Part shown: one piece after another, positions 4,044-47,030 of the stretch
Layout: each line of letters opens with the position of its first letter
How positions within the stretch are numbered: position 1 is the first letter of the stretch
Source of the DNA: Acidobacteriota bacterium
GTDB lineage: Bacteria; Acidobacteriota; Vicinamibacteria; Vicinamibacterales; CAVVIG01
NCBI GenBank assembly: GCA_016195265.1
Contig: JACPZW010000037.1
Span: 1-64,000, forward strand
Reading direction: 5' to 3'
Length of the DNA: 64,000 nucleotides
Translations under genes and position numbers: made by a program
Notes under the pieces: model-generated
What the model was told of the DNA's origin: nothing
The model's database searches: none
Seen by the model: the letters and a program-made list of their open reading frames with translations, nothing else

Positions 4044-4858
4044 GCGGGGAACAGCCATTGCCGAAGCGCGATGAGCGCCTGGCGCGGACGCGGCACGCGG
4101 GCCCGCGCCGTGAACACATCGTAGTGATTGCGCTCGATGCGGCGCAGCGTCTCGAAATACACCGCACGCATGATCTCCGCCGCCACGAGACGCCCGCAGT
4201 CCGCCAGCGGACGCGCGTCCACCGCGCGCTGATAGAAGTCCCTGGCGCGCACGCACTCGAACGCAATCAACGCGCGCACGCGGTCGTGCACGACGCCGGC
4301 GCTCAGGTCATCGACAGTGCAGCCGTGCTCTTCCAGGTCTTCGAGCGGCAGGTACACGCGGCCGAGCTCGAGGTCGCCCTTGACGTCGCGCAGGATGTTC
4401 GTCAGCTGCAGTGCGACACCGAGATTCAGCGCGTAGTCCGACGACCGCGGCTCCGTGCAGCCCCAGATGCGGATGCAGATCAACCCGACGGCCGACGCGA
4501 CGCGGCGGCAGTACTCGAAGAGATCGTCGAACGTCCGGTAGCGCGTCGTGTCCAGATCCATCGCGACGCCGTCGATCACATCGTCGAACGCCTGGCGCGG
4601 CAGATCGAATGACTTGATGAACGGCTGCAGCCGCTGAGCCTGTGGCGTCCGCGGCGCGCCGCCGTCGAACGCGCGCCCGAGCTCGGCGCGCCAGAACGCG
4701 ACCGCGTCCCGGCCCGTCGGCAATCCGTCGGCGACTGTCTCCTCTTCATCCACCGCATCGTCGACGGCGCGGCAGAAGTCCCAGACCGCGATGATGGCGC
4801 GGCGCTGTTCCGCCGGCAGCACCAGGAACGAATAGTAGAAGCTCGTTTTGCGCGCCAT
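4040..4858 (-). CDS. hpnD: Presqualene diphosphate synthase HpnD
   Basis: 272 residues, trans-isoprenyl diphosphate synthase (head-to-head) family. First Asp-rich motif DDAVDEEE at residues 33-40; second motif in LTNILRDVKGDLELGRVYLP. It joins two farnesyl diphosphates to presqualene diphosphate at the membrane. The start ATG at 4858 overlaps the TAA of hpnC (TAATG), and its own TGA overlaps the hpnE start, so all three genes are coupled. Family members differ from HpnC in the motif DRxxE/DDxVD context; gene order C-D-E is the standard one and supports the assignment. Confidence 0.93.
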   Translation of the reverse strand: MARKTSFYYSFLVLPAEQRRAIIAVWDFCRAVDDAVDEEETVADGLPTGRDAVAFWRAELGRAFDGGAPRTPQAQRLQPFIKSFDLPRQAFDDVIDGVAMDLDTTRYRTFDDLFEYCRRVASAVGLICIRIWGCTEPRSSDYALNLGVALQLTNILRDVKGDLELGRVYLPLEDLEEHGCTVDDLSAGVVHDRVRALIAFECVRARDFYQRAVDARPLADCGRLVAAEIMRAVYFETLRRIERNHYDVFTARARVPRPRQALIALRQWLFPA

Positions 4859-5775
4859 TACGACATTTTCGACGGGGCCGTCCAGCGTGCCGCGCGCCAC
4901 AGCAGCGACGGCGCGTCGCGCAGTCCGAGCGTCGGGCGGTCGTGCAGGAGATAGGGGGCGGCGTCTTCCACGGCGTCGAGCACGCGCATGCCGCCGTGCC
5001 AGGTGAGGCGGAGCTCGTAGCGCAGCCGTCCGCGTACGCCGTCGCAGACGGCCCGGCCCGCGGCAAACTTCTCGCGCGTGACGGCGATGCACCCATCGAG
5101 CACGGCGAGCCACTCGCCCGAGAGCATTGCGCCAGACAGATCCATTTCGCGCGCGCGGTTGAGCACGACCGCATCGCGCGGCACGTACAGTCGGCCGATC
5201 TGCCAGTCGCGGCCGAAGTCCTGCCAGAAGTTTGTCAACTGCAGCGCCGTACACAGCGCATCCGACGATCGAGCGAGCGTCTCATCGTGATAGCCGGCGA
5301 TCCGCAGCACGAGGCGGCCGACGGGATTCGCCGAGCGGCGGCAATAGTCGAAGACCTCCTCCCACGAGTCGTACCGCGACGTCGTGGTATCCTGCGCGAA
5401 CGCGCTCACGAGATCGTCGAACAGCGAGATCGGCAGATCGAGCGTCCGAATGGAATGCGCGAGCGCCACCAGCATCAGGCCCCGGTGATCAGTGTCATCC
5501 GTGAACGCCGCGCGACCGGCGCCGGTTGTGGACGCGACCGCGGCGTGAAGCCGATCCTGCCACGCGCGCAGCTGCGCCGCGCGCTCGGCCGCGGGCGCCT
5601 CGCCTTCGTCGGCGATGTCGTCCGCGATGCGCGCGAACGCATAAACGGCGGCGATGTGCGGGCGCATCACCCGCGGCAGCAGCCAGGACGCCACCGGAAA
5701 ATTCTCATAATGCGATCGGGCGAGCGCCTCGCACACGGCGTACGCGCGCGCGAGCGGTTCGGACCGGCGTGGCAC
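4858..5775 (-). CDS. hpnC: Hydroxysqualene synthase HpnC
   Basis: 305 residues, squalene/phytoene synthase fold. N-terminal HYENFPVASWLLP followed by YAFARIADDIADEGE (about residues 45-59, first Asp-rich motif) is typical of HpnC; the second motif lies in LTNFWQDFGRDWQIGRLYVP. Converts presqualene diphosphate to hydroxysqualene. The start is GTG at 5775; the only nearby ATG is out of frame. First gene of the operon, divergent from the gene at 5843, so its promoter should lie in the 67-bp spacer that also holds two ccgg-type hairpins. Confidence 0.92.
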   Translation of the reverse strand: MPRRSEPLARAYAVCEALARSHYENFPVASWLLPRVMRPHIAAVYAFARIADDIADEGEAPAAERAAQLRAWQDRLHAAVASTTGAGRAAFTDDTDHRGLMLVALAHSIRTLDLPISLFDDLVSAFAQDTTTSRYDSWEEVFDYCRRSANPVGRLVLRIAGYHDETLARSSDALCTALQLTNFWQDFGRDWQIGRLYVPRDAVVLNRAREMDLSGAMLSGEWLAVLDGCIAVTREKFAAGRAVCDGVRGRLRYELRLTWHGGMRVLDAVEDAAPYLLHDRPTLGLRDAPSLLWRAARWTAPSKMS

Positions 5776-5787
5776 CGACGCATTTTA

Positions 5788-5840
5788 GTCCGGCTGACGC
5801 CGGACATTCTCGCGGTCCGGCGAAAGCCGGACACCACGAC
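5788..5840. repeat. Two GTCCGGC-GCCGGAC hairpins in a divergent spacer
   Basis: agtccggctgacgccggac and ggtccggcgaaagccggacaccacgac lie back to back. The second is nearly identical (about 24 of 26) to the inverse copy inside the signal-peptide region of the gene at 62482-63636 (63562-63588), so this is a dispersed REP-like family. Confidence 0.75.
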
Positions 5841-5842
5841 CC

Positions 5843-6367
5843 ATGCGTGACGTCCTTGCGGGCGTGGCCGCGATCGTCCTGCTGCTGGCGGCGGCGAGCC
5901 TGGCGACGACGCTGCAGACGTTCCGGCGCCGCCGGCTGCGCGCCAGGGCGGCCGAACAGGATCAGGGCCGCGCGGTCATCGCGGAGATTCCCGGCGACGA
6001 GGATCTCGTCCTCTTCACGGCGGACGCGACGCACTTTCATTTTCGCGACCACGCGATCGACAAGACGGCGATCGTCGCCGTGAGACTACTGATCAACGGT
6101 GCACAGATTGCCGAAGGTCGGCGACGAGCTGCGGAGCGGGGCGAAGGGGTCCCCGCGGAGCGCGACCGGGGGGCAGGGGCCCCCGGAGTAATAGATGACC
6201 GGCCGGAGGGCATCGCCCGCGATCGGTGGGATGTCGCGATCGAGACTGCGACGGGCACGATGCTCGTGGAATGCGGCGCGATTCGTGAGCGCGTGTCGCA
6301 GGAACTGGCGCGGACCGTGTTCGATGCGGTGAAACACGACATGGAGCGACGAGACGATGATGTGTAG
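5843..6367 (+). CDS. Membrane-anchored protein of unknown function
   Basis: 174 residues, family not recognised. One N-terminal transmembrane segment (LAGVAAIVLLLAAASLATTL, residues 5-24) is followed by a basic stretch and a soluble domain with IPGDEDLVLFTADATHFHF. Residues about 91-118 (GRRRAAERGEGVPAERDRGAGAPG) look foreign: they are encoded by a GC-rich palindromic block whose near twin lies in frame in the E2 gene at 37409-37444. The flanking sequence reads as one domain without it. The stop codon TAG is the first triplet of a GTAGGCCGGGTCC repeat. Divergent from hpnC. Confidence 0.65.
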   Translation: MRDVLAGVAAIVLLLAAASLATTLQTFRRRRLRARAAEQDQGRAVIAEIPGDEDLVLFTADATHFHFRDHAIDKTAIVAVRLLINGAQIAEGRRRAAERGEGVPAERDRGAGAPGVIDDRPEGIARDRWDVAIETATGTMLVECGAIRERVSQELARTVFDAVKHDMERRDDDV

Positions 6368-6420
6368 GCCGGGTCCTTTCGGACCCGGCATGGACCGGCG
6401 GGTCCCAAAGGACCCGCCCT
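6364..6420. repeat. GTAGG-CGGGTCC hairpin pair, terminator-like
   Basis: gtaggccgggtcctttcgg then acccggc, and a second stem ggcgggtcccaaaggacccgcc. Two strong stem-loops between convergent genes; no U-run, so intrinsic termination is possible but unproven. The TAG of the left gene is inside the element. Confidence 0.65.
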
Positions 6421-6425
6421 GCATG

Positions 6426-6962
6426 TCACCACTCAGTTTCAGGAACGCCACTGCGTTTATTCACGACGCGGGCGAGGACGAACAACAGATCGGACAGGCG
6501 ATTCACGTAGCGGATCAGGACGGGGTCGACCGGCGGGTCGAGCGCGACCATGCGGCGCTCGGCGCGGCGGCAGACAGTCCGCGCCACGTGCGCCGCGGCG
6601 CCGGCGGGCGTGCCGCCGGCGAGGATGAAGCGGCGCAGCGGCGGGAGTTCTTCCTCGAGCCGATCGATCAGCTGCTCGAGACGGGTGACGTCGGCGTCGC
6701 CGATCACGGCCTTGGTCACGCGCGGCGCAAGCTTGTCCGCGGGATCGGCGAGTTGCGCGCCCAGCGCGAAGAGATCACGCTGGAGATGAATGACCTCGGC
6801 GTCCAGCGCGGCGTCGAGGCCTGACGCGCGGACAAGGCCGAGCCAGGCGTTGAGCTCGTCGATGTCGCCGTACGCGTCGACGCGCGGATCGTCCTTGGTG
6901 GTGCGTGTGCCGTCGAAGAGCGACGTCTCGCCGGTATCGCCGGTGCGCGTGTAGATTTTCAC
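6426..6962 (-). CDS. Cob(I)alamin adenosyltransferase, PduO type
   Basis: 178 residues. Starts with the family signature KIYTRTGDTGETSLF (ATP P-loop of PduO-type enzymes), has DELNAWLGL near residue 35 and the C-terminal RRAERRMVAL and YVNRLSDLLFVLAR segments. It transfers the adenosyl group of ATP to reduced corrinoid to make coenzyme B12. I chose the GTG at 6962 because the longer in-frame extension is encoded only by the repeated word ggtgacaggca. Divergent from mutY with a 71-bp spacer that is almost entirely repeat. Confidence 0.92.
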   Translation of the reverse strand: MKIYTRTGDTGETSLFDGTRTTKDDPRVDAYGDIDELNAWLGLVRASGLDAALDAEVIHLQRDLFALGAQLADPADKLAPRVTKAVIGDADVTRLEQLIDRLEEELPPLRRFILAGGTPAGAAAHVARTVCRRAERRMVALDPPVDPVLIRYVNRLSDLLFVLARVVNKRSGVPETEW

Positions 6963-7021
6963 AAGGGTGACAGGTAGGTGACAGGCAGGTGACAGGCACC
7001 TACCTGTCACCTGCCTGTCAC
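6963..7021. repeat. Near-palindromic GGTGACAGGCA word array
   Basis: Three copies of an 11-nt word (ggtgacaggta, ggtgacaggca, ggtgacaggca) are followed by the inverse words cctacctgtcacc and tgcctgtcaccc. The whole forms an almost perfect 59-bp palindrome filling the divergent spacer between the adenosyltransferase and mutY genes. Confidence 0.8.
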
Positions 7022-7033
7022 CCGCCCAATTAT

Positions 7034-7726
7034 ATGGCCAAGAAAAAGGCGCGACCCCTGCCGATCCCGGCGACGCCGGCGCGCAGGCGATTCCGCCAGC
7101 GCCTGCTGACGTGGTACCGCCGGCACGGCCGCGACCTGCCCTGGCGCAAGACCGGCGACCCGTACCACATCCTCGTGTCGGAGATCATGCTGCAGCAGAC
7201 GCAGGTGGACCGCGTGCTGCCGAAGTACGCCGAGTGGCTGGAGAAGTACCCGTCGATGCACGTGCTCGCGTCGGCGCCCGAGCACGAGGTGACCGAGACC
7301 TGGCGTCCGCTCGGCTACAACATCCGCCCACGCCGGCTGCAGAGCATCGCGCGCGAAGCCGTGGCGCGGTACGGCGGCGCGCTGCCGTCGGATGAAGAGA
7401 CGCTGCTGTCGTTCAAGGGGATTGGTGCGTACACCGCCGGCGCCATCCGAAGCTTCGCGTTCGGCGAGCGCGCGGCGATTCTCGACACGAACGTCGCGCG
7501 CGTGCTCTTTCGCGTGTTCGTCGGCAGAGGTGAGCCGAAGAGCCACGCAATGACGAAACATCTCTGGACGCTGTCGGCGACGCTCGTCCCGTCGCGCCAC
7601 GTCTTCGACTTCAATCAGGCACTGATGGATTTCGGCGCGATGATCTGCGTCGCGCGGAATCCGAAATGTCTCGTGTGTCCGATGAAGAAAGACTGCCGGT
7701 GGATCAAAGGACCCGTCCCCAAATGA
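7034..7726 (+). CDS. mutY: A/G-specific adenine glycosylase (MutY), short form
   Basis: 230 residues. HhH-GPD DNA glycosylase core: SEIMLQQTQVDRV with the catalytic Glu, the helix-hairpin-helix LLSFKGIGAYTAGAI, the catalytic Asp in AAILDTNVARV, and a C-terminal 4Fe-4S site C-x6-C-x2-C-x5-C (residues about 205-221). Removes adenine opposite 8-oxoguanine. The C-terminal Nudix-like recognition domain of full MutY is missing. Instead a separate Nudix gene follows with an ATGA overlap. Start ATG at 7034, after the repeat. Clear glycosylase; the short form could also be an endonuclease III-like variant. Confidence 0.85.
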   Translation: MAKKKARPLPIPATPARRRFRQRLLTWYRRHGRDLPWRKTGDPYHILVSEIMLQQTQVDRVLPKYAEWLEKYPSMHVLASAPEHEVTETWRPLGYNIRPRRLQSIAREAVARYGGALPSDEETLLSFKGIGAYTAGAIRSFAFGERAAILDTNVARVLFRVFVGRGEPKSHAMTKHLWTLSATLVPSRHVFDFNQALMDFGAMICVARNPKCLVCPMKKDCRWIKGPVPK

Positions 7727-8106
7727 CCCTTGTCATCGTCACCGCCGCCGTCATCGAGCGCGACGGACGCTTCTTCGTCACGCGACGGCAGCCGGGCGTC
7801 CACCTCGAGGGCTCTTGGGAATTTCCCGGCGGCAAATGCGATCCCGACGAGACGCTCGCCGCGTGCCTCGCGCGCGAACTGCGCGAGGAACTCGACGTCG
7901 ACGCGCGCATCGGCGACGAAGTCTTCACCATCACGCATACGTACCCGGACCGGCATGTGGAGCTGCATTTTTTCGCGTGCGAACTGCTGGGCGAGCCGAA
8001 GCCGCAGCAGGGTCAGGCGATGCTGTGGGTGCGGCGCCAGGATCTCGCGACGCTGGAGTTTCCGCCGGCGGACAAGGAGTTGATTGAGCGACTAATGAAG
8101 TTGTAG
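7723..8106 (+). CDS. mutT: Nudix hydrolase, MutT/8-oxo-dGTPase-like
   Basis: 127 residues. The Nudix box G-x5-E-x7-RELREEL is complete (GGKCDPDETLAACLARELRE, about residues 38-57). N-terminal IVTAAVIERDGRFFVTRRQPG matches MutT/CTP pyrophosphohydrolases that sanitise 8-oxo-dGTP. Its ATG overlaps the mutY stop (ATGA), so the two oxidative-damage functions are translated together. The TAG stop is part of the following GTAGGGCGGGTCC repeat. Substrate is inferred from family and neighbour. Confidence 0.85.
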   Translation: MTLVIVTAAVIERDGRFFVTRRQPGVHLEGSWEFPGGKCDPDETLAACLARELREELDVDARIGDEVFTITHTYPDRHVELHFFACELLGEPKPQQGQAMLWVRRQDLATLEFPPADKELIERLMKL

Positions 8107-39936: not shown

Positions 39937-41325
39937 ATGAGCCACAAACCCAAGACCGTCCTCATTGTCGACGACGACGAGGGGATGCGGGACACGCTGA
40001 CCGCGATCCTCAAGCGGGAGTATCGCGTGCTGCGGGTCTCGAGCGGGGAGGCGGCTCTTCCTATCCTCAACCGCGAGGACGTGGACCTCATGCTGCTCGA
40101 CGTCCGCCTGCCGGGCATCAGCGGGTTCGAGGTCCTCCGCATCGTCAAGGAAAACTACAGCTTGGTCGAGGTCCTCATGATCTCGGCCATCAACGAGATC
40201 GAGACCGCCGTGCAGGCGATGAAGCACGGCGCGTATCACTACGTCACGAAGGACTTCGACTACGACCAGTTGCGGTCGCTCGTGCGGAACGCGAGCGAGC
40301 GGCAGGATCTGAATCGTCAGGTGTTGACGCTGTCGGCGCAGGTCGCCGATCAGGCCGAGCGCGAGTTCATCGTCGGCCCGAGCAAGATGACGCGCGACAT
40401 CGTCGATCTCGTCCACAAGATCGCGAAGCTCTCGGCCACGGTGCTGATTCTCGGCGAGAGCGGCACGGGCAAGGAGCTGCTCGCACGGCTGATTCACCGC
40501 GAGGCCGGCGATCCCGAAGCGCCGTTCATCGCGGTCAATCTGGCCGCGATTCCGCGCGAGCTCGTGGAAAGCACGCTGTTCGGGCACGAGCGCGGCGCGT
40601 TCACCGGCGCGCATCGGCAGCAGCTCGGCAAGTTCGAGCTCGCATCGAACGGCACGCTGTTCCTCGACGAAATCGGCGACCTACGTCTGGATCTCCAGGC
40701 CAAACTCCTGCGCGCCATTCAGGAAGGCGAGATCGAGCGCGTCGGCGGGACCAAGCCTATCAAGACCGAATTCCGCCTCATCGCGGCAACCAACATCGAT
40801 CTTGATAAGGCGGTGAAAGAGGGACGGTTCCGGGAAGATCTCTACTATCGCGTCAACGTCATCCCGATCAAGCTGCCGCCGCTGCGCGAACGCACGGAAG
40901 ACGTCCCGCAGCTCGCGGACTTCTTCCTCCGGCGGTACAACACGCGGTTCCGGAAGAGCATTCAAGGCATCACCGACTCCACGATGGCGTTCCTAAAGAA
41001 GTACTGGTGGCCAGGCAACATCCGGGAGCTCGAAAACCTGATAGAGCGGCTGGTCGCCGTCAGCGATAAGGACTACATCTCTGAAGAAGATCTACCGCTC
41101 GAGTTTCATTTCGCGCAGCTGGAGCCGCGGGGCGCGGGCACAGACAATCTGTTTGAGGATGCGACGAATACCTTCGAGCGGAACTTCATTTTGCGCGCGC
41201 TCGAGAAATGCGGCTGGAATGTGACTGGGACTGCGGAGTACCTTGGAATTCCGTTGAGTACGTTGAAGTACAAGATGGACAAGCTCGACGTGCGTCAACT
41301 TGCGAAACGATTGCGCGGAGCATGA
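39937..41325 (+). CDS. NtrC-family sigma-54-dependent response regulator
   Basis: 462 residues: receiver domain (1-120, phospho-acceptor Asp 55 in LMLLDVRLPG), AAA+ domain with Walker A GESGTGKE (173-180), the sigma-54 contact loop GAFTGA (220-225), Walker B TLFLDEIGD, and a C-terminal Fis-type helix-turn-helix (WNVTGTAEYLGIPLSTLKYK). ATG at 39937. It lies 293 bp upstream of the radical SAM gene, whose promoter has sigma-54 form; the Cache kinase at 44663 is the likely partner. Confidence 0.93.
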   Translation: MSHKPKTVLIVDDDEGMRDTLTAILKREYRVLRVSSGEAALPILNREDVDLMLLDVRLPGISGFEVLRIVKENYSLVEVLMISAINEIETAVQAMKHGAYHYVTKDFDYDQLRSLVRNASERQDLNRQVLTLSAQVADQAEREFIVGPSKMTRDIVDLVHKIAKLSATVLILGESGTGKELLARLIHREAGDPEAPFIAVNLAAIPRELVESTLFGHERGAFTGAHRQQLGKFELASNGTLFLDEIGDLRLDLQAKLLRAIQEGEIERVGGTKPIKTEFRLIAATNIDLDKAVKEGRFREDLYYRVNVIPIKLPPLRERTEDVPQLADFFLRRYNTRFRKSIQGITDSTMAFLKKYWWPGNIRELENLIERLVAVSDKDYISEEDLPLEFHFAQLEPRGAGTDNLFEDATNTFERNFILRALEKCGWNVTGTAEYLGIPLSTLKYKMDKLDVRQLAKRLRGA

Positions 41326-41544
41326 GCAGAGCCAAGAACCTGACCGCGACGGTCAAGTCATTGCCTTTCCCACCTAATCCTCTGATTTCCCAGCACTAAC
41401 CTCGATATACCAACAGTCATTCGGACACGCGCGGACAATGAATTGCCCGCGGTGACCGACGGCTCCAACTGACTCTTCTCCCGCGGCTCAATCGATCGGT
41501 TGATTCCCCGAGCAAAACCTGTGCATTTTCCTCGACGCCGCAGG
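41326..41544. other. Regulator-to-maturase spacer
   Basis: About 220 bp without a gene, lower GC than its surroundings, no dispersed repeat. Binding sites for the NtrC-type activator would be expected here, but I could not identify a convincing palindrome. Confidence 0.4.
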
Positions 41545-41559
41545 TGGAACACCCGTTGC
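41545..41559 (+). promoter_or_regulatory. Sigma-54-type promoter
   Basis: TGGAACACCCGTTGC matches the -24/-12 consensus TGGCACG-N4-TTGC with two mismatches and exact GG-to-GC spacing. Transcription would start near 41571, upstream of the ATG at 41618 and downstream of an alternative ATG at 41564, which helps choose the start. Confidence 0.65.
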
Positions 41560-41617
41560 AGCCATGCATTGCGACCGGCGTGCTGAAACGTTCTACCAAG
41601 AATTGATCCAGCCGTAC

Positions 41618-43060
41618 ATGCAGCCTTCGATATTCAACCTTCGGGTTCCGCTCGCGGCGCGCGACGACGTGTTCCTGATGAACACGCTGACCGACGCGCA
41701 GCTGGTGGTGTCGCCGGATGTGACGGCGCTACTCGATGAGATCGCGCGCGGCGAATTTCGTGGGGCGAGCGGCGTTGCTCCGGAAACGCGCGAAGCACTC
41801 GACCTGCTGTGGGAAAACGGCTTCCTCGTCACCGACGGCGACACCGAGCGCCGCGCGCTCAACGACTACCTGACCGGCGTCAAGAACGACAGCTCGGAAT
41901 TCAGCGTGACCGTTTTGACGACGCTGCAGTGCAACTTCGCGTGCGACTACTGCTTTCAGGGCGATCACGGCGACTACAACGATCGCGCCGACAAGATGTC
42001 GCTCGCCACGGCCGCGCGCGTCGGCGACTGGATCGAGCGCGAGCTCGACCGCGTGCGGCCCGAGCGATTCGGGCTGACGTTCTTTGGCGGCGAACCGCTG
42101 CTCAATCTGCCGGTGATGTACCTGCTCGCCGAGCGCCTGTGGCGCGCCGCCGAGGCACGCGGCGTGACGATGTACACCAACATCATCACCAACGGCCTGC
42201 TGCTGACCGAGGACGTCGTCGATCGCATGCTGCCGTTCGGACTGAACGGCATCAAGATCACGCTCGACGGCGACCGGGACACGCACAACCGCATGCGGCC
42301 GTTGCGCGGCGGCCAGGGCACCTTCGATCGCATCGTCGAGAACATCCGTCGCGTGGCCGGCCGTTGCCGCATCGCGATCGGCGGCAACTTCGACGAGAGC
42401 TCGATCGACAGCTATCCCGCCCTGCTCGACTTTCTGAAAGCACAGGATTTCGCCGACAAGCTCGTCAAGGTCAATTTCAAGCCCATCGTGCGCGCGGAGC
42501 CCGTCGCGCCCAAAGGGATGATCCCGCTGACGCTGGTCGGCGCGGCCGGCGCCCCCGGTGCAAAAGAGAACCTCAAGGGCACCTGCATGACGTCGGTCGG
42601 TTCCGGCGCGGGCAAGGCGTGCGATTCGTGCGGCGGCCTGGAAGACAAATGGACGGCGCTGCGCGAGGACACGAAGCGGCACGGGTTCCCGACGGCGGAT
42701 GGCGTGCCGAAGGGCATGTGCCACGTCCACCGGACCCACGCGCACACCATCGGCCCAGACGGTTCGCTCTACGCGTGCCCCGGTTTCACCGGTCAGCTCG
42801 CGATGTCCACGGGCCATATCGACGATCGCAAGGACGCGCTGCGCGAGTCAGCGCTCGAGAAATTCAATCGACTGCATCCGTGGAAAGAGTGTGGAGACTG
42901 CGCGTTCATCCCGACGTGTGCCGGGGGGTGCGTGGCGGCCTCGCATTCACAGACTGGTGACATGAACACGCCGACATGTCACAAGTCCAGTTTTGAATCG
43001 GCGCTCATCGCGCTGGCGCATGAAGCGGCCAGCAAAGACGCGGCTACTCAGGCTGCGTAG
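41618..43060 (+). CDS. Radical SAM/SPASM peptide maturase
   Basis: 480 residues. An N-terminal RiPP-recognition-like region (1-95) precedes the radical SAM core with Cys 105, 109 and 112 in LQCNFACDYCFQGDHG, then FFGGEPLLN and NIITNGLLL strands. The C-terminal SPASM region binds two more Fe-S clusters: Cys in GTCMTSVG, ACDSCGG, GMCHVH, LYACPGF, WKECGDCAFIPTCAGGC and PTCHKSS. Such enzymes install C-C, C-S or cyclophane links in short precursor peptides. The start at 41618 is downstream of the predicted transcription start. The precursor gene follows 9 nt later, with its ribosome site overlapping this stop codon. Confidence 0.9.
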   Translation: MQPSIFNLRVPLAARDDVFLMNTLTDAQLVVSPDVTALLDEIARGEFRGASGVAPETREALDLLWENGFLVTDGDTERRALNDYLTGVKNDSSEFSVTVLTTLQCNFACDYCFQGDHGDYNDRADKMSLATAARVGDWIERELDRVRPERFGLTFFGGEPLLNLPVMYLLAERLWRAAEARGVTMYTNIITNGLLLTEDVVDRMLPFGLNGIKITLDGDRDTHNRMRPLRGGQGTFDRIVENIRRVAGRCRIAIGGNFDESSIDSYPALLDFLKAQDFADKLVKVNFKPIVRAEPVAPKGMIPLTLVGAAGAPGAKENLKGTCMTSVGSGAGKACDSCGGLEDKWTALREDTKRHGFPTADGVPKGMCHVHRTHAHTIGPDGSLYACPGFTGQLAMSTGHIDDRKDALRESALEKFNRLHPWKECGDCAFIPTCAGGCVAASHSQTGDMNTPTCHKSSFESALIALAHEAASKDAATQAA

Positions 43061-43069
43061 GAGACTACA

Positions 43070-43162
43070 ATGAAGATCACAGTTGTGAAGACCGTCTCGA
43101 GCAAGAAACCCGCCGGCTACTGCGATATCTGGGTCGACTTTCCGGCAATGAACAAGAAGTAA
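43070..43162 (+). CDS. Putative RiPP precursor peptide, 30 residues
   Basis: Tiny gene with a good ribosome site (ggag, 6 nt before ATG). Lys-rich leader MKITVVKTVSSKKPAG, then core GYCDIWVDFPAMNKK. The core has aromatic residues spaced Y17-C-D, W21-V-D and F24, matching the aromatic-x-D/N triplets that three-residue cyclophane-forming radical SAM enzymes modify; the single Cys 18 is an alternative crosslink site. Placed directly between maturase and oligopeptide-binding protein genes (2 nt to the next ATG). I do not know a named family. Its identity as substrate is inferred from position and composition. Confidence 0.75.
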   Translation: MKITVVKTVSSKKPAGYCDIWVDFPAMNKK

Positions 43163-43164
43163 CG

Positions 43165-44658
43165 ATGGACGACCAGCGCCGGTTGTTCGGTCTGGCTACG
43201 GTGTGCGTGGCGGTGGCGGCTGTGCTGCTCACCGCCTGCCGGCCGGCCACCGGCGAGCAGTCGTCTAGCTCCGATCCGATCGCGCTTCACGTCGGCGTTC
43301 CTCAATTGCCAGCGAACGCGACGAACGGTCTTCGGCAACTGGCTCAGAACCAGGCTGTCGAGTCGCTCGCTAGCGTGGCGGACGATGGCCGGCTGCGGCC
43401 GTCGCTGGCAAAGGACTGGCGAGTCAGTACGGACGGTTTAACGCTGACCGTGAATCTCAGGTCAGGCGTAACCTTTCACGACGGCACGCCGGTGACCTCG
43501 ACAATCGTCGCAAACTCCATCAGGCAGACGTTGCCATCGGTTATGGGGACTGCGTTCACCGACATCGAGGATGTGGCCACTGCAGGCGAAACGCAGGTCG
43601 TTGTGCGCTTGCGACACCGGTCGCCCTTCCTGCTCGACGCTCTGGAGGTGCCCGTCCCGAAACCGGGAGCGGCGCTCACGGGAACGGGGCCGTTCATCGT
43701 TGAAGATCAGAAATCGCCAACCGAACTCAAAGCCAACCCTAAGTACTATCTCGGACGGCCAACTGTCGATCGGATCCTTGTGGAGACGTTCCCCAGCGTA
43801 CGAACGGCCTGGGCCGAGATGCTGCGAGGACGGATCGACATGTTGTACGAGGTTGGCGTCGACGAACTGGACTTGCTCGAAGCGTCAACGAATGTCGCGA
43901 TCTTCACGTTTGCTCGCGCCTATCAGTACGCCGTTGTCTTGAACCAGGAGTCGGCAGGTCTGCGCTCCAAGGAGGTTAGACAAGCGCTCAACCTTTCGAT
44001 CGATCGAGATGCCCTTGTGCAAAAAGTTCTTCGAGGACACGGAACTGTTTCGTTCGGTCCGGTTTGGCCGCACAATTTCGCCGCTCGGGCAGACTGGCCC
44101 GTGTTCAGATTCGATCCAAAGTTGGCTGCTCAGAAGCTGGCGCAAACCAGCGGCTCACGAGGTGACCCGTTGCGCTTCACTTGTCTGGTTCGACCGAACG
44201 AACTTGATGAGCGAATGTCACTCGTTCTCAAGCAGCAACTGGAAGCAGTTGGCATCGACATGAACATCGAAGAAGCCGAAATGGATCGAATCATTGACTC
44301 TTTGAATCACCGCCGGTTCGACGCCGTGCTGCTCGAGTCGCCGAACGGACCTACTCTGCTACGTTCATATCGGTCATGGCACTCCGGCGGACCGATGAAC
44401 GCTCACAGCGAAACTGTCGACACCGCGCTAGACGCGATTCGATATGCGAAATCTGAAGAAGAGTATACGAAAGCCGTTGGGTCGTTCCAGCAAGCTGCTA
44501 TAGACGACCCTCCCGCGATTTTCCTCGCGTGGGTGGAGCGCGCACGAGCCGTGAGTAAGCGGTTCATTGTGCCGCTCGCCGAACCAGGACGTGATATTCT
44601 CAGCACCCTTCGGCTGTGGAAGCCAGCGACCGACCAGCGCGTAGCGAATCGGAACTAG
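43165..44658 (+). CDS. Oligopeptide-binding lipoprotein (ABC substrate-binding, family 5)
   Basis: 497 residues. Lipoprotein signal ending LLTAC (Cys 26), then the DppA/OppA fold: LAKDWRVSTDGLTLTVNLRS, VTFHDGTPVT and SFGPVWP-like segments. Family 5 binding proteins hold peptides of 2-5 residues or longer. No permease or ATPase genes are nearby, so it may act as a receptor rather than in uptake. GC content is visibly lower than in flanking genes, hinting at separate ancestry. Lies 4 nt upstream of the kinase gene. Confidence 0.88.
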   Translation: MDDQRRLFGLATVCVAVAAVLLTACRPATGEQSSSSDPIALHVGVPQLPANATNGLRQLAQNQAVESLASVADDGRLRPSLAKDWRVSTDGLTLTVNLRSGVTFHDGTPVTSTIVANSIRQTLPSVMGTAFTDIEDVATAGETQVVVRLRHRSPFLLDALEVPVPKPGAALTGTGPFIVEDQKSPTELKANPKYYLGRPTVDRILVETFPSVRTAWAEMLRGRIDMLYEVGVDELDLLEASTNVAIFTFARAYQYAVVLNQESAGLRSKEVRQALNLSIDRDALVQKVLRGHGTVSFGPVWPHNFAARADWPVFRFDPKLAAQKLAQTSGSRGDPLRFTCLVRPNELDERMSLVLKQQLEAVGIDMNIEEAEMDRIIDSLNHRRFDAVLLESPNGPTLLRSYRSWHSGGPMNAHSETVDTALDAIRYAKSEEEYTKAVGSFQQAAIDDPPAIFLAWVERARAVSKRFIVPLAEPGRDILSTLRLWKPATDQRVANRN

Positions 44659-44662
44659 GCCG

Positions 44663-46426
44663 ATGACCCTCAGGATCCGTCGCATCGCCTACCGCTTCGC
44701 GCTCCTGCTGGCGCTGGCGGCGGTCGTGCCGCTGATCGCATACGGCTTCGTCTCGATCCTCTCGCTGCAGCGCGGCACGCGCGAATCGGTCATCGCCGGC
44801 AACCAGAACGTCGCTACGCGCGCCGCCGAGGAAATCCGCCGCTACGTTGTCACGCACGCGGACCTGCTGCGCGCGCTCTCCGCCGACCTGCAGGACACTG
44901 GCCTCGCGCAGCACCAGCAGGATCAGATTCTCAAGAACTTCGTCCTGCAGTTCCGCGAGTTCCGCGAGATCACGCTGTTCGACGAAAACGGCGCGACCGT
45001 CGCCACGAGCCGCGTCGGCAAGCCGCGCATCACGATTCCGAAAAACGGTCAGCCGGTGGCGGAACGCGTGACGATGTCGTCCATCCACGTCGACGACGAC
45101 CTGCTGCCGACGACCGTGTTCTCGGTCCGCCTGACGAAACTCAACGAGCCCTCGGGCTGGCTGACCGGCGAGTTCAACCTCGAGGAGATGTGGCGGATGG
45201 TCGACCACATCCGCATCGGCGACCACGGCTACGCGCTCGTCATCGCGCCGGGTGGCGAACTGATCGCGCACGGCGACCCCGACAAGAAGGCGCTGGTCGC
45301 GCGGACCGTGAACATGGCCGCGCATCCGCTGATGGCGATTGCGCCCGCGCAGGCCGACGCGCCGACGGTGTCGCGCGAGTACGTGGATGCGGACGGCCAG
45401 AACAATCTCGGCGTCGCGGCGCGCATCGCCCAGCTCGGCTGGACCGTGATCGTCGAGCAGCCGACCGCCGAAGCATACGCAAACGCCACCGTGCTGCAGC
45501 GGCAGCTCCTCATCGCGATCTCGCTCGGGCTGCTGCTGATGATTTCAGTCGGGTATCTCTTCGGCCGGTCGTTCATCAATCCGATCCTCGCGCTCAAGCG
45601 CGGCACGCAGGCCGTGGCCGAGGGCCAGCTCGACACGCGCGTCGACATCCGCACCGGCGACGAGTTCGGCGATCTCGGCGATGCGTTCAACACGATGGCC
45701 GATCGGCTCGTGCAGCTGCAGGAAGACGTCAAACGCCAGGAGCGCCAGACGATGTTCGGGCGCGTCGCCGCCGGCCTCGTCCACGATCTCTCGCACCCGA
45801 TTCAGAACATCGGCAACAGCCTGCGCCTCCTGGAACGGGACGACCTTGACGCCGAGTCGCGCGATCTGTTCCGTCGCACGATCGGACGCGAGATCGCCAC
45901 GCTGAAGCGGTTCATGGACGACCTGCGGCATCTGGTCAAGCCGAAGCCGATTGAGCGCTTCGCCATGGATGTCACCGGATCGGTCGCCGAGATCGTCGAG
46001 GCCATGCGCGGTGAAGCCGAGCGGAGTGGATTGACCGTCGAGACGTCGTACGCGGAAGGCCCGTTGCTGATCAACGGCGACCGCTTCGCGCTCGGACGCG
46101 TGTATCGCAATCTCATCAGCAATGCGATTCAGGCGACCGAGCCCGGCGGCCGCGTCACCGTCACGACGGCGCGCTCCGGCGACCGCGTCGAAGTCCGCGT
46201 GGCCGATACGGGATCAGGGATTCCCGCGGATCGCCTTACGGCCATCTTCGACGATTTTGTAACGACGAAACGCCGAGGCCTCGGCTTGGGCTTGGCCATT
46301 TCCAAGCGCATCGTCGAACAACTCGACGGCACGATTGTTGTAGAAAGCGAAGTCGGACGCGGGACGTCGTTCACGCTGGGCTTCCCGGCCAGCGATGAAA
46401 GCTCACGGCACGCGGCGGCAAGTTGA
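44663..46426 (+). CDS. Cache-HAMP sensor histidine kinase
   Basis: 587 residues: transmembrane helix (about 11-33), extracytoplasmic double Cache domain (35-280), second helix (281-300), HAMP (301-355), HisKA with phospho-acceptor His 374 in AAGLVHDLSHPIQNIG, and HATPase with NAIQAT, DTGSGIP and GLGLGLAISK. It lacks a receiver, so it needs a partner; the NtrC-type regulator on the other side of the peptide genes is the obvious one. The binding lipoprotein before it may deliver the ligand. Confidence 0.9.
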   Translation: MTLRIRRIAYRFALLLALAAVVPLIAYGFVSILSLQRGTRESVIAGNQNVATRAAEEIRRYVVTHADLLRALSADLQDTGLAQHQQDQILKNFVLQFREFREITLFDENGATVATSRVGKPRITIPKNGQPVAERVTMSSIHVDDDLLPTTVFSVRLTKLNEPSGWLTGEFNLEEMWRMVDHIRIGDHGYALVIAPGGELIAHGDPDKKALVARTVNMAAHPLMAIAPAQADAPTVSREYVDADGQNNLGVAARIAQLGWTVIVEQPTAEAYANATVLQRQLLIAISLGLLLMISVGYLFGRSFINPILALKRGTQAVAEGQLDTRVDIRTGDEFGDLGDAFNTMADRLVQLQEDVKRQERQTMFGRVAAGLVHDLSHPIQNIGNSLRLLERDDLDAESRDLFRRTIGREIATLKRFMDDLRHLVKPKPIERFAMDVTGSVAEIVEAMRGEAERSGLTVETSYAEGPLLINGDRFALGRVYRNLISNAIQATEPGGRVTVTTARSGDRVEVRVADTGSGIPADRLTAIFDDFVTTKRRGLGLGLAISKRIVEQLDGTIVVESEVGRGTSFTLGFPASDESSRHAAAS

Positions 46427-46464
46427 TTAAGGGGATCCGGATGACACCGGATATGGAGGGTGAC

Positions 46465-46704
46465 ATGTTCCGAACGCTCGTGAAGACCGATGCGCTGGCG
46501 ATAGACGAAACGACGGTGCCTGTGCGGTATTTCGAGTTACGGACGCTGCGCGGCGCGCGCCGCTACAGCGCGGAAATCCTGTTGGGCCCCGAGGACCGGA
46601 TCATTCTCGACGACGACTCGATGACCAATCTCGAAGCGCGCGCGACCCGGCTCGTGCCGGCCACGCTCTACAGCCGCGTCCTCGCCCGCGCGACAGCTGC
46701 CTAG
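46465..46704 (+). CDS. Small protein of unknown function downstream of kinase
   Basis: 79 residues, beta-rich (VPVRYFELRTLRGARRYSAE). ATG at 46465 has an excellent ribosome site ggaggg 5 nt upstream, so earlier in-frame ATGs are rejected. Same direction as the kinase, 38 nt after its stop; may belong to the same transcript. Family not recognised. Confidence 0.65.
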   Translation: MFRTLVKTDALAIDETTVPVRYFELRTLRGARRYSAEILLGPEDRIILDDDSMTNLEARATRLVPATLYSRVLARATAA

Positions 46705-46727: not shown

Positions 46728-47030
46728 CTACTTGCGCGGCAGGACCGCGTCTTTGAGCTGTTTCGCGATTCGCGCCTTGACGACGGTCTTGGCGGGACTC
46801 TTGATGGCCTCGCCCGTCGCCTGGTTGCGGCCCATGCGCGCCTTGCGCTTCTGCACCACCAGCTTCACCATCCCGGGCAGCACGAACTCGCCCGAGCGCT
46901 TCAACTCTTTCTCGGACAGCGCCGTCAGCTCGTCGAAGAATTCGCGGGCCTGCGTCCGCTTCACTTCGAAGCGCTCGGCGAAGTGCGAGAAGAGTTCGGA
47001 TTTGCCCATCCTGCGGGCGTCAGACGACAT
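46728..47030 (-). CDS. HU/IHF-family DNA-binding protein
   Basis: 100 residues. KSELFSHFAERFEVKRTQAR dimerisation helices and the DNA arm VQKRKARMGRNQATGEAIKS (GRNPxTGE in classic HU). Nucleoid-associated bending protein. ATG at 47030 has agggg-type site upstream; ATG 47009 is an alternative. Convergent with the small gene at 46465. Confidence 0.9.
   Translation of the reverse strand: MSSDARRMGKSELFSHFAERFEVKRTQAREFFDELTALSEKELKRSGEFVLPGMVKLVVQKRKARMGRNQATGEAIKSPAKTVVKARIAKQLKDAVLPRK

What the first reader, a model, noticed from the sequence alone, without database searches (positions are those of the whole stretch)
43070..43162. 30-residue candidate precursor with aromatic-x-Asp core
MKITVVKTVSSKKPAG leader and GYCDIWVDFPAMNKK core, with its own ribosome site overlapping the maturase stop. 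Y-C-D and W-V-D triplets fit three-residue cyclophane chemistry; Cys 18 could instead form a thioether.
Basis: partly seen in the sequence, partly recalled or inferred. Interest (0 to 1): 0.85.

Follow-up and report, generated by a model that had tools for sequence, protein, structure and literature searches.

The report
Cys-cored radical-SAM peptide with sensor-kinase circuit
A 30-residue gene next to a radical-SAM enzyme is a real, order-wide conserved peptide precursor built around one invariant cysteine, and it sits in a four-gene block with a peptide-binding lipoprotein and a sensor kinase whose predicted promoter shares its control site with a secreted protease gene, which suggests a previously undescribed peptide-signalling system in soil Acidobacteriota.

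Summary
The ORF is real and exact (43070-43162, AGGAG site overlapping the maturase stop). Alone it would be chance; conservation makes it a gene. Of 57 distinct maturase loci with enough downstream sequence, 55 carry an intact homologue, sometimes in tandem; pN/pS is 0.50 in frame against 1.06 and 1.18 out of frame. The cyclophane reading fails: Y-C-D occurs in 2 of 63 homologues and W-x-D in 3. Only Cys18 is invariant; residue 23 is Asp/Glu in 58 of 63 (Cys-X4-Asp/Glu). The nearest solved structure to the maturase is CteB, a thioether former, so a Cys-based crosslink is the better guess, unproven.

Around it: NtrC-type regulator, then maturase, peptide, family-5 solute-binding lipoprotein and dCache histidine kinase. 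These four occur all-or-none between the regulator and an HU gene; one genome shows decay with the peptide's Cys turned to Ser. A sigma-54 promoter and a GGCCAA-N4-TTGGCC palindrome are specific to the regulator-maturase gap. The same palindrome precedes a secreted subtilase gene in 18 of 29 relatives' loci (0.1 expected).

Best model: a modified peptide in an autoregulated two-component circuit tied to extracellular proteolysis. The crosslink, export and SBP-kinase sensing are inferred. New variant of a known kind (rSAM RiPP).

The parts
43070..43162 (+). precursor peptide gene, 30 aa: basic beta-strand-like leader MKITVVK...KKP and core GYC18DIWVD23FPAMNKK; Cys18 codon 43121-43123
41618..43060 (+). 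radical SAM/SPASM maturase with N-terminal winged-helix (RRE-like) region; annotated ORF starts at 41564, but homology (M19) and the promoter put the start at 41618
43059..43063 (+). AGGAG ribosome-binding site of the peptide gene, overlapping the maturase stop
43165..44658 (+). orphan family-5 solute-binding lipoprotein (SBP_bac_5, lipobox LTAC), starting 2 nt after the peptide stop
44663..46426 (+). dCache-HAMP sensor histidine kinase, co-occurring with maturase, peptide and SBP
39937..41325 (+). NtrC-family sigma-54 response regulator, present in occupied and in empty loci
41544..41560 (+). sigma-54 promoter element GTGGAACACCCGTTGCA (-24/-12) in front of the maturase operon
41433..41448 (.). 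palindromic operator GGACAATGAATTGCCC, putative regulator-binding site about 100 nt upstream of the -24/-12 element
41351..41366 (.). second, degenerate operator GGTCAAGTCATTGCCT
46728..47030 (-). HU-like DNA-binding protein gene; marks the right border of the block (directly next to the regulator in genomes without the block)

Best explanation
43070-43162 encodes the precursor of a cysteine-centred RiPP. The adjacent radical SAM/SPASM maturase binds its basic beta-strand leader and crosslinks the core, most likely as a thioether from Cys18 to residue 22 or 23 (a Cys-X3/4 ring). Maturase, peptide, SBP lipoprotein and histidine kinase form one operon driven by a sigma-54 promoter under the neighbouring NtrC-type regulator, whose predicted operator also precedes a secreted subtilase gene in many relatives. 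The matured peptide, or peptides bound by the SBP, would be sensed through SBP and kinase, which phosphorylates the regulator, giving positive feedback and control of extracellular proteolysis. Shown by sequence: conserved gene, invariant Cys, all-or-none block, promoter and operator conservation, shared operator with the subtilase gene. Inferred: thioether chemistry, export and leader removal, SBP-kinase sensing, regulator binding to the operator.
For: Conservation in 55/57 loci with tandem copies; purifying selection; invariant Cys18 and Asp/Glu23 in 58/63. Maturase best matches CteB by sequence and fold. In a model of the maturase read through into the peptide, leader residues 3-7 form a beta strand (block pLDDT about 81). 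Fixed gene order over the order and empty sites lacking maturase, peptide, SBP and kinase together. Decay in G023/L087: no maturase, SBP stub, kinase frame break, peptide core GISPIYLDD with Cys changed to Ser. Sigma-54 element in 87% of 62 regulator-maturase gaps at shuffle p<=0.05 against 2-8% in three control gaps. Operator GGNCAA-N4-TTGNCC in 38/62 gaps against 0-1 in control gaps. Same operator at 11/12 or better upstream of an S8 subtilase in 18/29 loci, 0.1 expected.
Against: No chemistry is shown, and no exporter or dedicated leader peptidase lies in the block. The closest relative has a broken peptide gene and L057 has lost it. Residue 23 is A/S/T/C in five homologues, so Asp is not strictly required. 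Ten loci carry an extra Cys-less peptide (PWLVD core), always beside a Cys-type one, which a pure thioether model does not explain. The regulator persists without the block, so it has other duties and perhaps another kinase. The SBP-peptide co-variation test was inconclusive. Neighbouring SBP and kinase genes are not always functionally linked (PMC11113362). This genome itself has only three strict operator sites, none found at a subtilase gene.
Confidence: 0.5

Rival explanations
1. Three-residue cyclophane (triceptide): the maturase joins an aromatic side chain to the beta carbon of Asp two residues on (Y17-C-D19, W21-V-D23).
For: The window peptide contains both triplets. Trp or Phe at position 20 is common in the wider order and the Cys-less paralogues have PWLVD.
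Against: Y-C-D occurs in 2/63 and W-x-D in 3/63; five homologues lack aromatics at 19-24. YhhB- and FxsB-type cyclophane maturases score far below the geopeptide, CefB and PapB models.
Confidence: 0.07
2. The regulator, kinase and SBP sense nutrient peptides or another ligand, and the RiPP is an effector (metallophore, antimicrobial or protease-related factor) induced with the proteolysis regulon rather than the signal itself.
For: The SBP belongs to the oligopeptide/nickel-binding family 5. The operator also precedes a subtilase gene and, in G021 and G050, a divergent SBP-permease transporter gene pair. The regulator remains without the peptide.
Against: The kinase and SBP are lost together with the peptide while the regulator stays, which ties the sensing genes to the peptide; no immunity or export genes are in the block.
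Confidence: 0.33
3. The small ORF is not translated or functional and its conservation reflects a regulatory RNA or overlap with neighbouring genes.
For: Very short; broken in the closest relative.
Against: Protein-level conservation, in-frame pN/pS of 0.50 and third-position excess, tandem copies, and variable distance to the maturase from -4 to several hundred nt.
Confidence: 0.03

Closest known systems
Ranthipeptides of the PapA/PapB type (thioether from Cys to Asp/Glu; PMC9413430)
   Same: rSAM/SPASM maturase; single Cys followed by Asp/Glu; PapB natively uses Cys-X3-Asp/Glu and accepts Cys-Xn-Asp with n = 0-6
   Different: One Cys-X4-Asp/Glu motif instead of six Cys-X3 motifs; residue 23 replaced by A/S/T/C in five homologues; maturase 132.6 bits against the PapB cut-off of 340; embedded in a two-component, sigma-54 operon
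CteB / SCIFF maturase (PDB 5wgg, 5why)
   Same: Best sequence and fold match, N-terminal RRE-like region plus SPASM
   Different: 100.7 bits against a cut-off of 425 for the SCIFF maturase model; the precursor has one Cys, not six
Geopeptide radical SAM maturase (TIGR04280) and CefB (NF038107)
   Same: Highest-scoring named families (251.5 and 186.7 bits)
   Different: Both below curated cut-offs (400 and 600); the precursor matches no Pfam or NCBIfam model
Triceptides (three-residue cyclophanes, YhhB/FxsB type)
   Same: SPASM maturase and short precursor
   Different: No conserved aromatic-x-x core motif
SBP-dependent sensor kinases (general class, PMC11113362)
   Same: Solute-binding lipoprotein gene directly before a kinase gene with an extracytoplasmic sensor domain
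   Different: Coupled to a peptide precursor and rSAM maturase in the same operon; SBP-kinase contact untested

Membership tests
RiPP precursor of an rSAM/SPASM maturase | small gene adjacent to and co-inherited with the maturase, conserved leader, variable core | tested here: met
   55/57 loci, tandem copies, pN/pS 0.50
RiPP precursor of an rSAM/SPASM maturase | the maturase modifies the peptide | not testable with these tools
   needs co-expression and mass spectrometry
Triceptide / three-residue cyclophane | conserved aromatic-x-x core motif | tested here: not met
   W-x-D 3/63, Y-C-D 2/63, five homologues without aromatics at 19-24
Ranthipeptide | conserved donor Cys with an acceptor a few residues away | tested here: met
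   Cys18 63/63, Asp/Glu23 58/63
Ranthipeptide | thioether to a non-alpha carbon | not testable with these tools
   needs MS/MS or NMR
PapB family (NF047865) | score above the curated cut-off of 340 bits | tested here: not met
   132.6 bits
Geopeptide maturase (TIGR04280) | score above the curated cut-off of 400 bits | tested here: not met
   251.5 bits
CefB, Cys-every-fifth maturase (NF038107) | cut-off of 600 bits and a Cys-every-fifth precursor | tested here: not met
   186.7 bits; one Cys in the precursor
SCIFF maturase (TIGR03974) | cut-off of 425 bits and a six-Cys precursor | tested here: not met
   100.7 bits; one Cys
Sigma-54 enhancer-activated operon | -24/-12 element and upstream operator, specific to the operon | tested here: met
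SBP-dependent sensor kinase | SBP binds the kinase sensor domain | not testable with these tools
   only adjacency and all-or-none co-occurrence shown

The most novel reading that the evidence does not exclude
A ribosomal peptide crosslinked by a radical-SAM enzyme serves as the pheromone of a Gram-negative two-component system: a solute-binding lipoprotein captures it and a dCache kinase relays it to an NtrC-type regulator that switches on its own operon and secreted subtilases, that is, quorum control of extracellular proteolysis in Acidobacteriota.
Probability: 0.3. Interest if true: 0.88.

Novelty: new variant of a known kind. Interest (0 to 1): 0.62.

Why it matters
It appears to be an uncatalogued RiPP family (no Pfam or NCBIfam model hits the precursor, and the maturase is below every named cut-off seen) inherited in a fixed place across one order of soil bacteria rather than in a mobile cluster. 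Genes for making, probably sensing and regulating the peptide lie in one operon with a predicted promoter and operator, so the peptide's function becomes testable, including in the single-contig Luteitalea-like genomes. If the peptide is the signal, it would be a radical-SAM-modified pheromone read through a solute-binding protein and kinase in a Gram-negative, linked to secreted proteases.

Tried and rejected
Cyclophane motif tested and rejected as the conserved core. Membership in named maturase families tested by curated cut-offs and rejected. Co-variation of SBP with the peptide core, controlling for regulator distance: partial r 0.44, but the kinase catalytic part gave 0.45, so not informative. 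A wider search for the maturase over 396 genomes of the phylum found it only in the same order. Metagenome scan unavailable. Literature searches for this system, for geopeptides and for Luteitalea with radical SAM found nothing on it. Several perfect operator matches lie in unrelated places and are taken as background: 66 genome-wide sites in 60 genomes is close to the reversed-pattern control of about 65 by my count; only the sites at the regulator-maturase gap and at the subtilase gene are argued to be functional.

Full report
Observation. ORFs of this size are abundant by chance and no library model hits it, so relatives had to decide.

Relatives. The maturase (radical SAM + SPASM) has relatives in 35 of 60 nearby genomes and 51 loci of the species-wide collection, and in 19 of 396 genomes across the phylum, all of the same order. 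Record titles that name an order or family say Vicinamibacterales, Vicinamibacteraceae or Luteitalea; a few discordant titles are probably misnamed assemblies. Directly after the maturase, 55 of 57 distinct loci with enough sequence have an intact homologue (L057 in the script's count is a false hit and L076, fused in frame to its maturase, was missed). Copies are duplicated in tandem in several loci (L030, L047, L050, L059, L086, L111; four near-identical copies in L068). In-frame pN/pS is 0.50, and 1.06 and 1.18 in the wrong frames. Exceptions: the nearest relative has two stops in the leader and L057 has lost the core.

Core. Over 63 distinct Cys-type peptides the only invariant residue is Cys18; position 19 is Pro in 49, 20 Trp in 38, 22 Val or Ile in 50, 23 Asp or Glu in 58 and A, S, T or C in the other five; aromatic-x-Asp is not conserved. 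The leader is MK[IV]x[VI][VI]KK...KP. Ten loci carry in addition a Cys-less peptide with the core [RTSHW]P[WF]LVD, always next to a Cys-type one. A conserved Cys followed at a fixed distance by a carboxylate resembles the Cys-X3-Asp/Glu motif of PapB substrates, an enzyme that tolerates n = 0-6 (PMC9413430); here the spacing is X4.

Maturase. Best PDB match by sequence and by fold of a pLDDT-84 model is CteB, then TigE and SuiB. Named NCBIfam families score below cut-off (geopeptide 251.5/400, CefB 186.7/600, PapB 132.6/340). Because the peptide is in frame with the maturase, the stop could be read as a residue to model both in one chain: leader residues 3-7 come out as a beta strand with block pLDDT near 81, the core is disordered. 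This agrees with leader recognition by an RRE-like region but does not locate the crosslink.

Operon. The order regulator, maturase, peptide(s), SBP, kinase, then an inverted HU gene is fixed across the order. In eight genomes without the maturase the regulator lies directly beside HU (L088-L095): maturase, peptide, SBP and kinase are absent as a set. Other presence/absence mismatches coincide with contig ends where I checked. One genome of the same genus as an empty one (G023; empty sister G009) shows a half-decayed block: maturase gone, SBP reduced to a C-terminal stub, kinase frame broken, peptide still present but its Cys is Ser. It is a single case, but it fits Cys being kept for the maturase.

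Regulation. The regulator is an NtrC-family protein. In the regulator-maturase gap a -24/-12 sigma-54 element scores above shuffles in 87% of 62 gaps and in 2-8% of three control gap classes; the empty loci lack it. In the window it is GTGGAACACCCGTTGCA at 41544-41560, so the true maturase start is Met19 at 41618. Upstream lies a palindrome GGNCAA-N4-TTGNCC in 38 of 62 gaps (0.1 in shuffles, 0-1 in control gaps), in the window at 41433-41448 and, degenerate, at 41351-41366; the whole own genome has only three strict sites.

Regulon. Perfect palindromes elsewhere in relatives fall repeatedly in front of genes for a secreted S8 subtilase, in some genomes with a small HTH_17 gene between, and in G021 and G050 a family-5 SBP gene followed by a permease gene reads divergently from the same region. 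Starting from the subtilase family instead, 18 of 29 loci have an operator of at least 11/12 within 900 nt upstream (0.1 expected), most followed by a sigma-54-like element. That the neighbouring regulator binds this operator is inferred from position, and a paralogous activator is not excluded.

Mechanism. The most economical reading is an autoregulated peptide circuit: precursor made, crosslinked at Cys, exported by something outside the block, captured by the SBP lipoprotein, read by the dCache kinase, regulator phosphorylated, sigma-54 transcription of its own operon and of proteolysis genes. The main rival is that the sensors read nutrient peptides and the RiPP is an effector. Sequence cannot decide between them; the co-variation test was uninformative, and adjacent SBP and kinase genes are not always linked (PMC11113362).

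Verdict. Observation confirmed; cyclophane interpretation not supported; precursor claim supported; thioether alternative favoured but unproven. The system is a new variant of a known kind with an unusually informative context.

Noticed in passing
window 46423-46704 (+): A small protein of about 90 aa without Pfam match follows the kinase and is conserved in many but not all occupied loci; role unknown.
   Followed up: partly
L068 7434-8600: Four near-identical tandem copies of the Cys-type precursor plus two Cys-less ones between maturase and SBP.
   Followed up: partly
L076 6001-7554: Maturase and precursor are one open reading frame (natural fusion or lost stop).
   Followed up: partly
L087 (G023) 4226-8079: Half-decayed block: maturase gone, SBP stub, kinase frame break, precursor with Cys to Ser, while a perfect operator remains beside the regulator.
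   Followed up: yes
L036 3377-3467: Closest relative's precursor has two in-frame stops in the leader but an intact core; sequencing error or recent decay.
   Followed up: partly
L136, L139, L146, L147, L137, L150 and L154-L183: GGCCAA-N4-TTGGCC operators with sigma-54-like elements upstream of S8 subtilase genes, some with a small HTH_17 gene between; in G021 and G050 a divergent family-5 SBP and permease gene pair.
   Followed up: partly
L104 3794-7032: About 3.2 kb of extra DNA between regulator and maturase in G058, content not examined.
   Followed up: no
L060, L061, L064, L069, L070, L075, between precursor and SBP: A similar sequence stretch recurs between precursor and SBP genes in one clade (reads ...AAPPPG.GAAFFF... 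in one frame); possible hairpin or attenuator, not analysed.
   Followed up: no
G000:C7:21950-22975 (L002, L125): A second rSAM protein with a possible SPASM-like C-terminal match (open frame 544 aa) elsewhere in the same genome.
   Followed up: no
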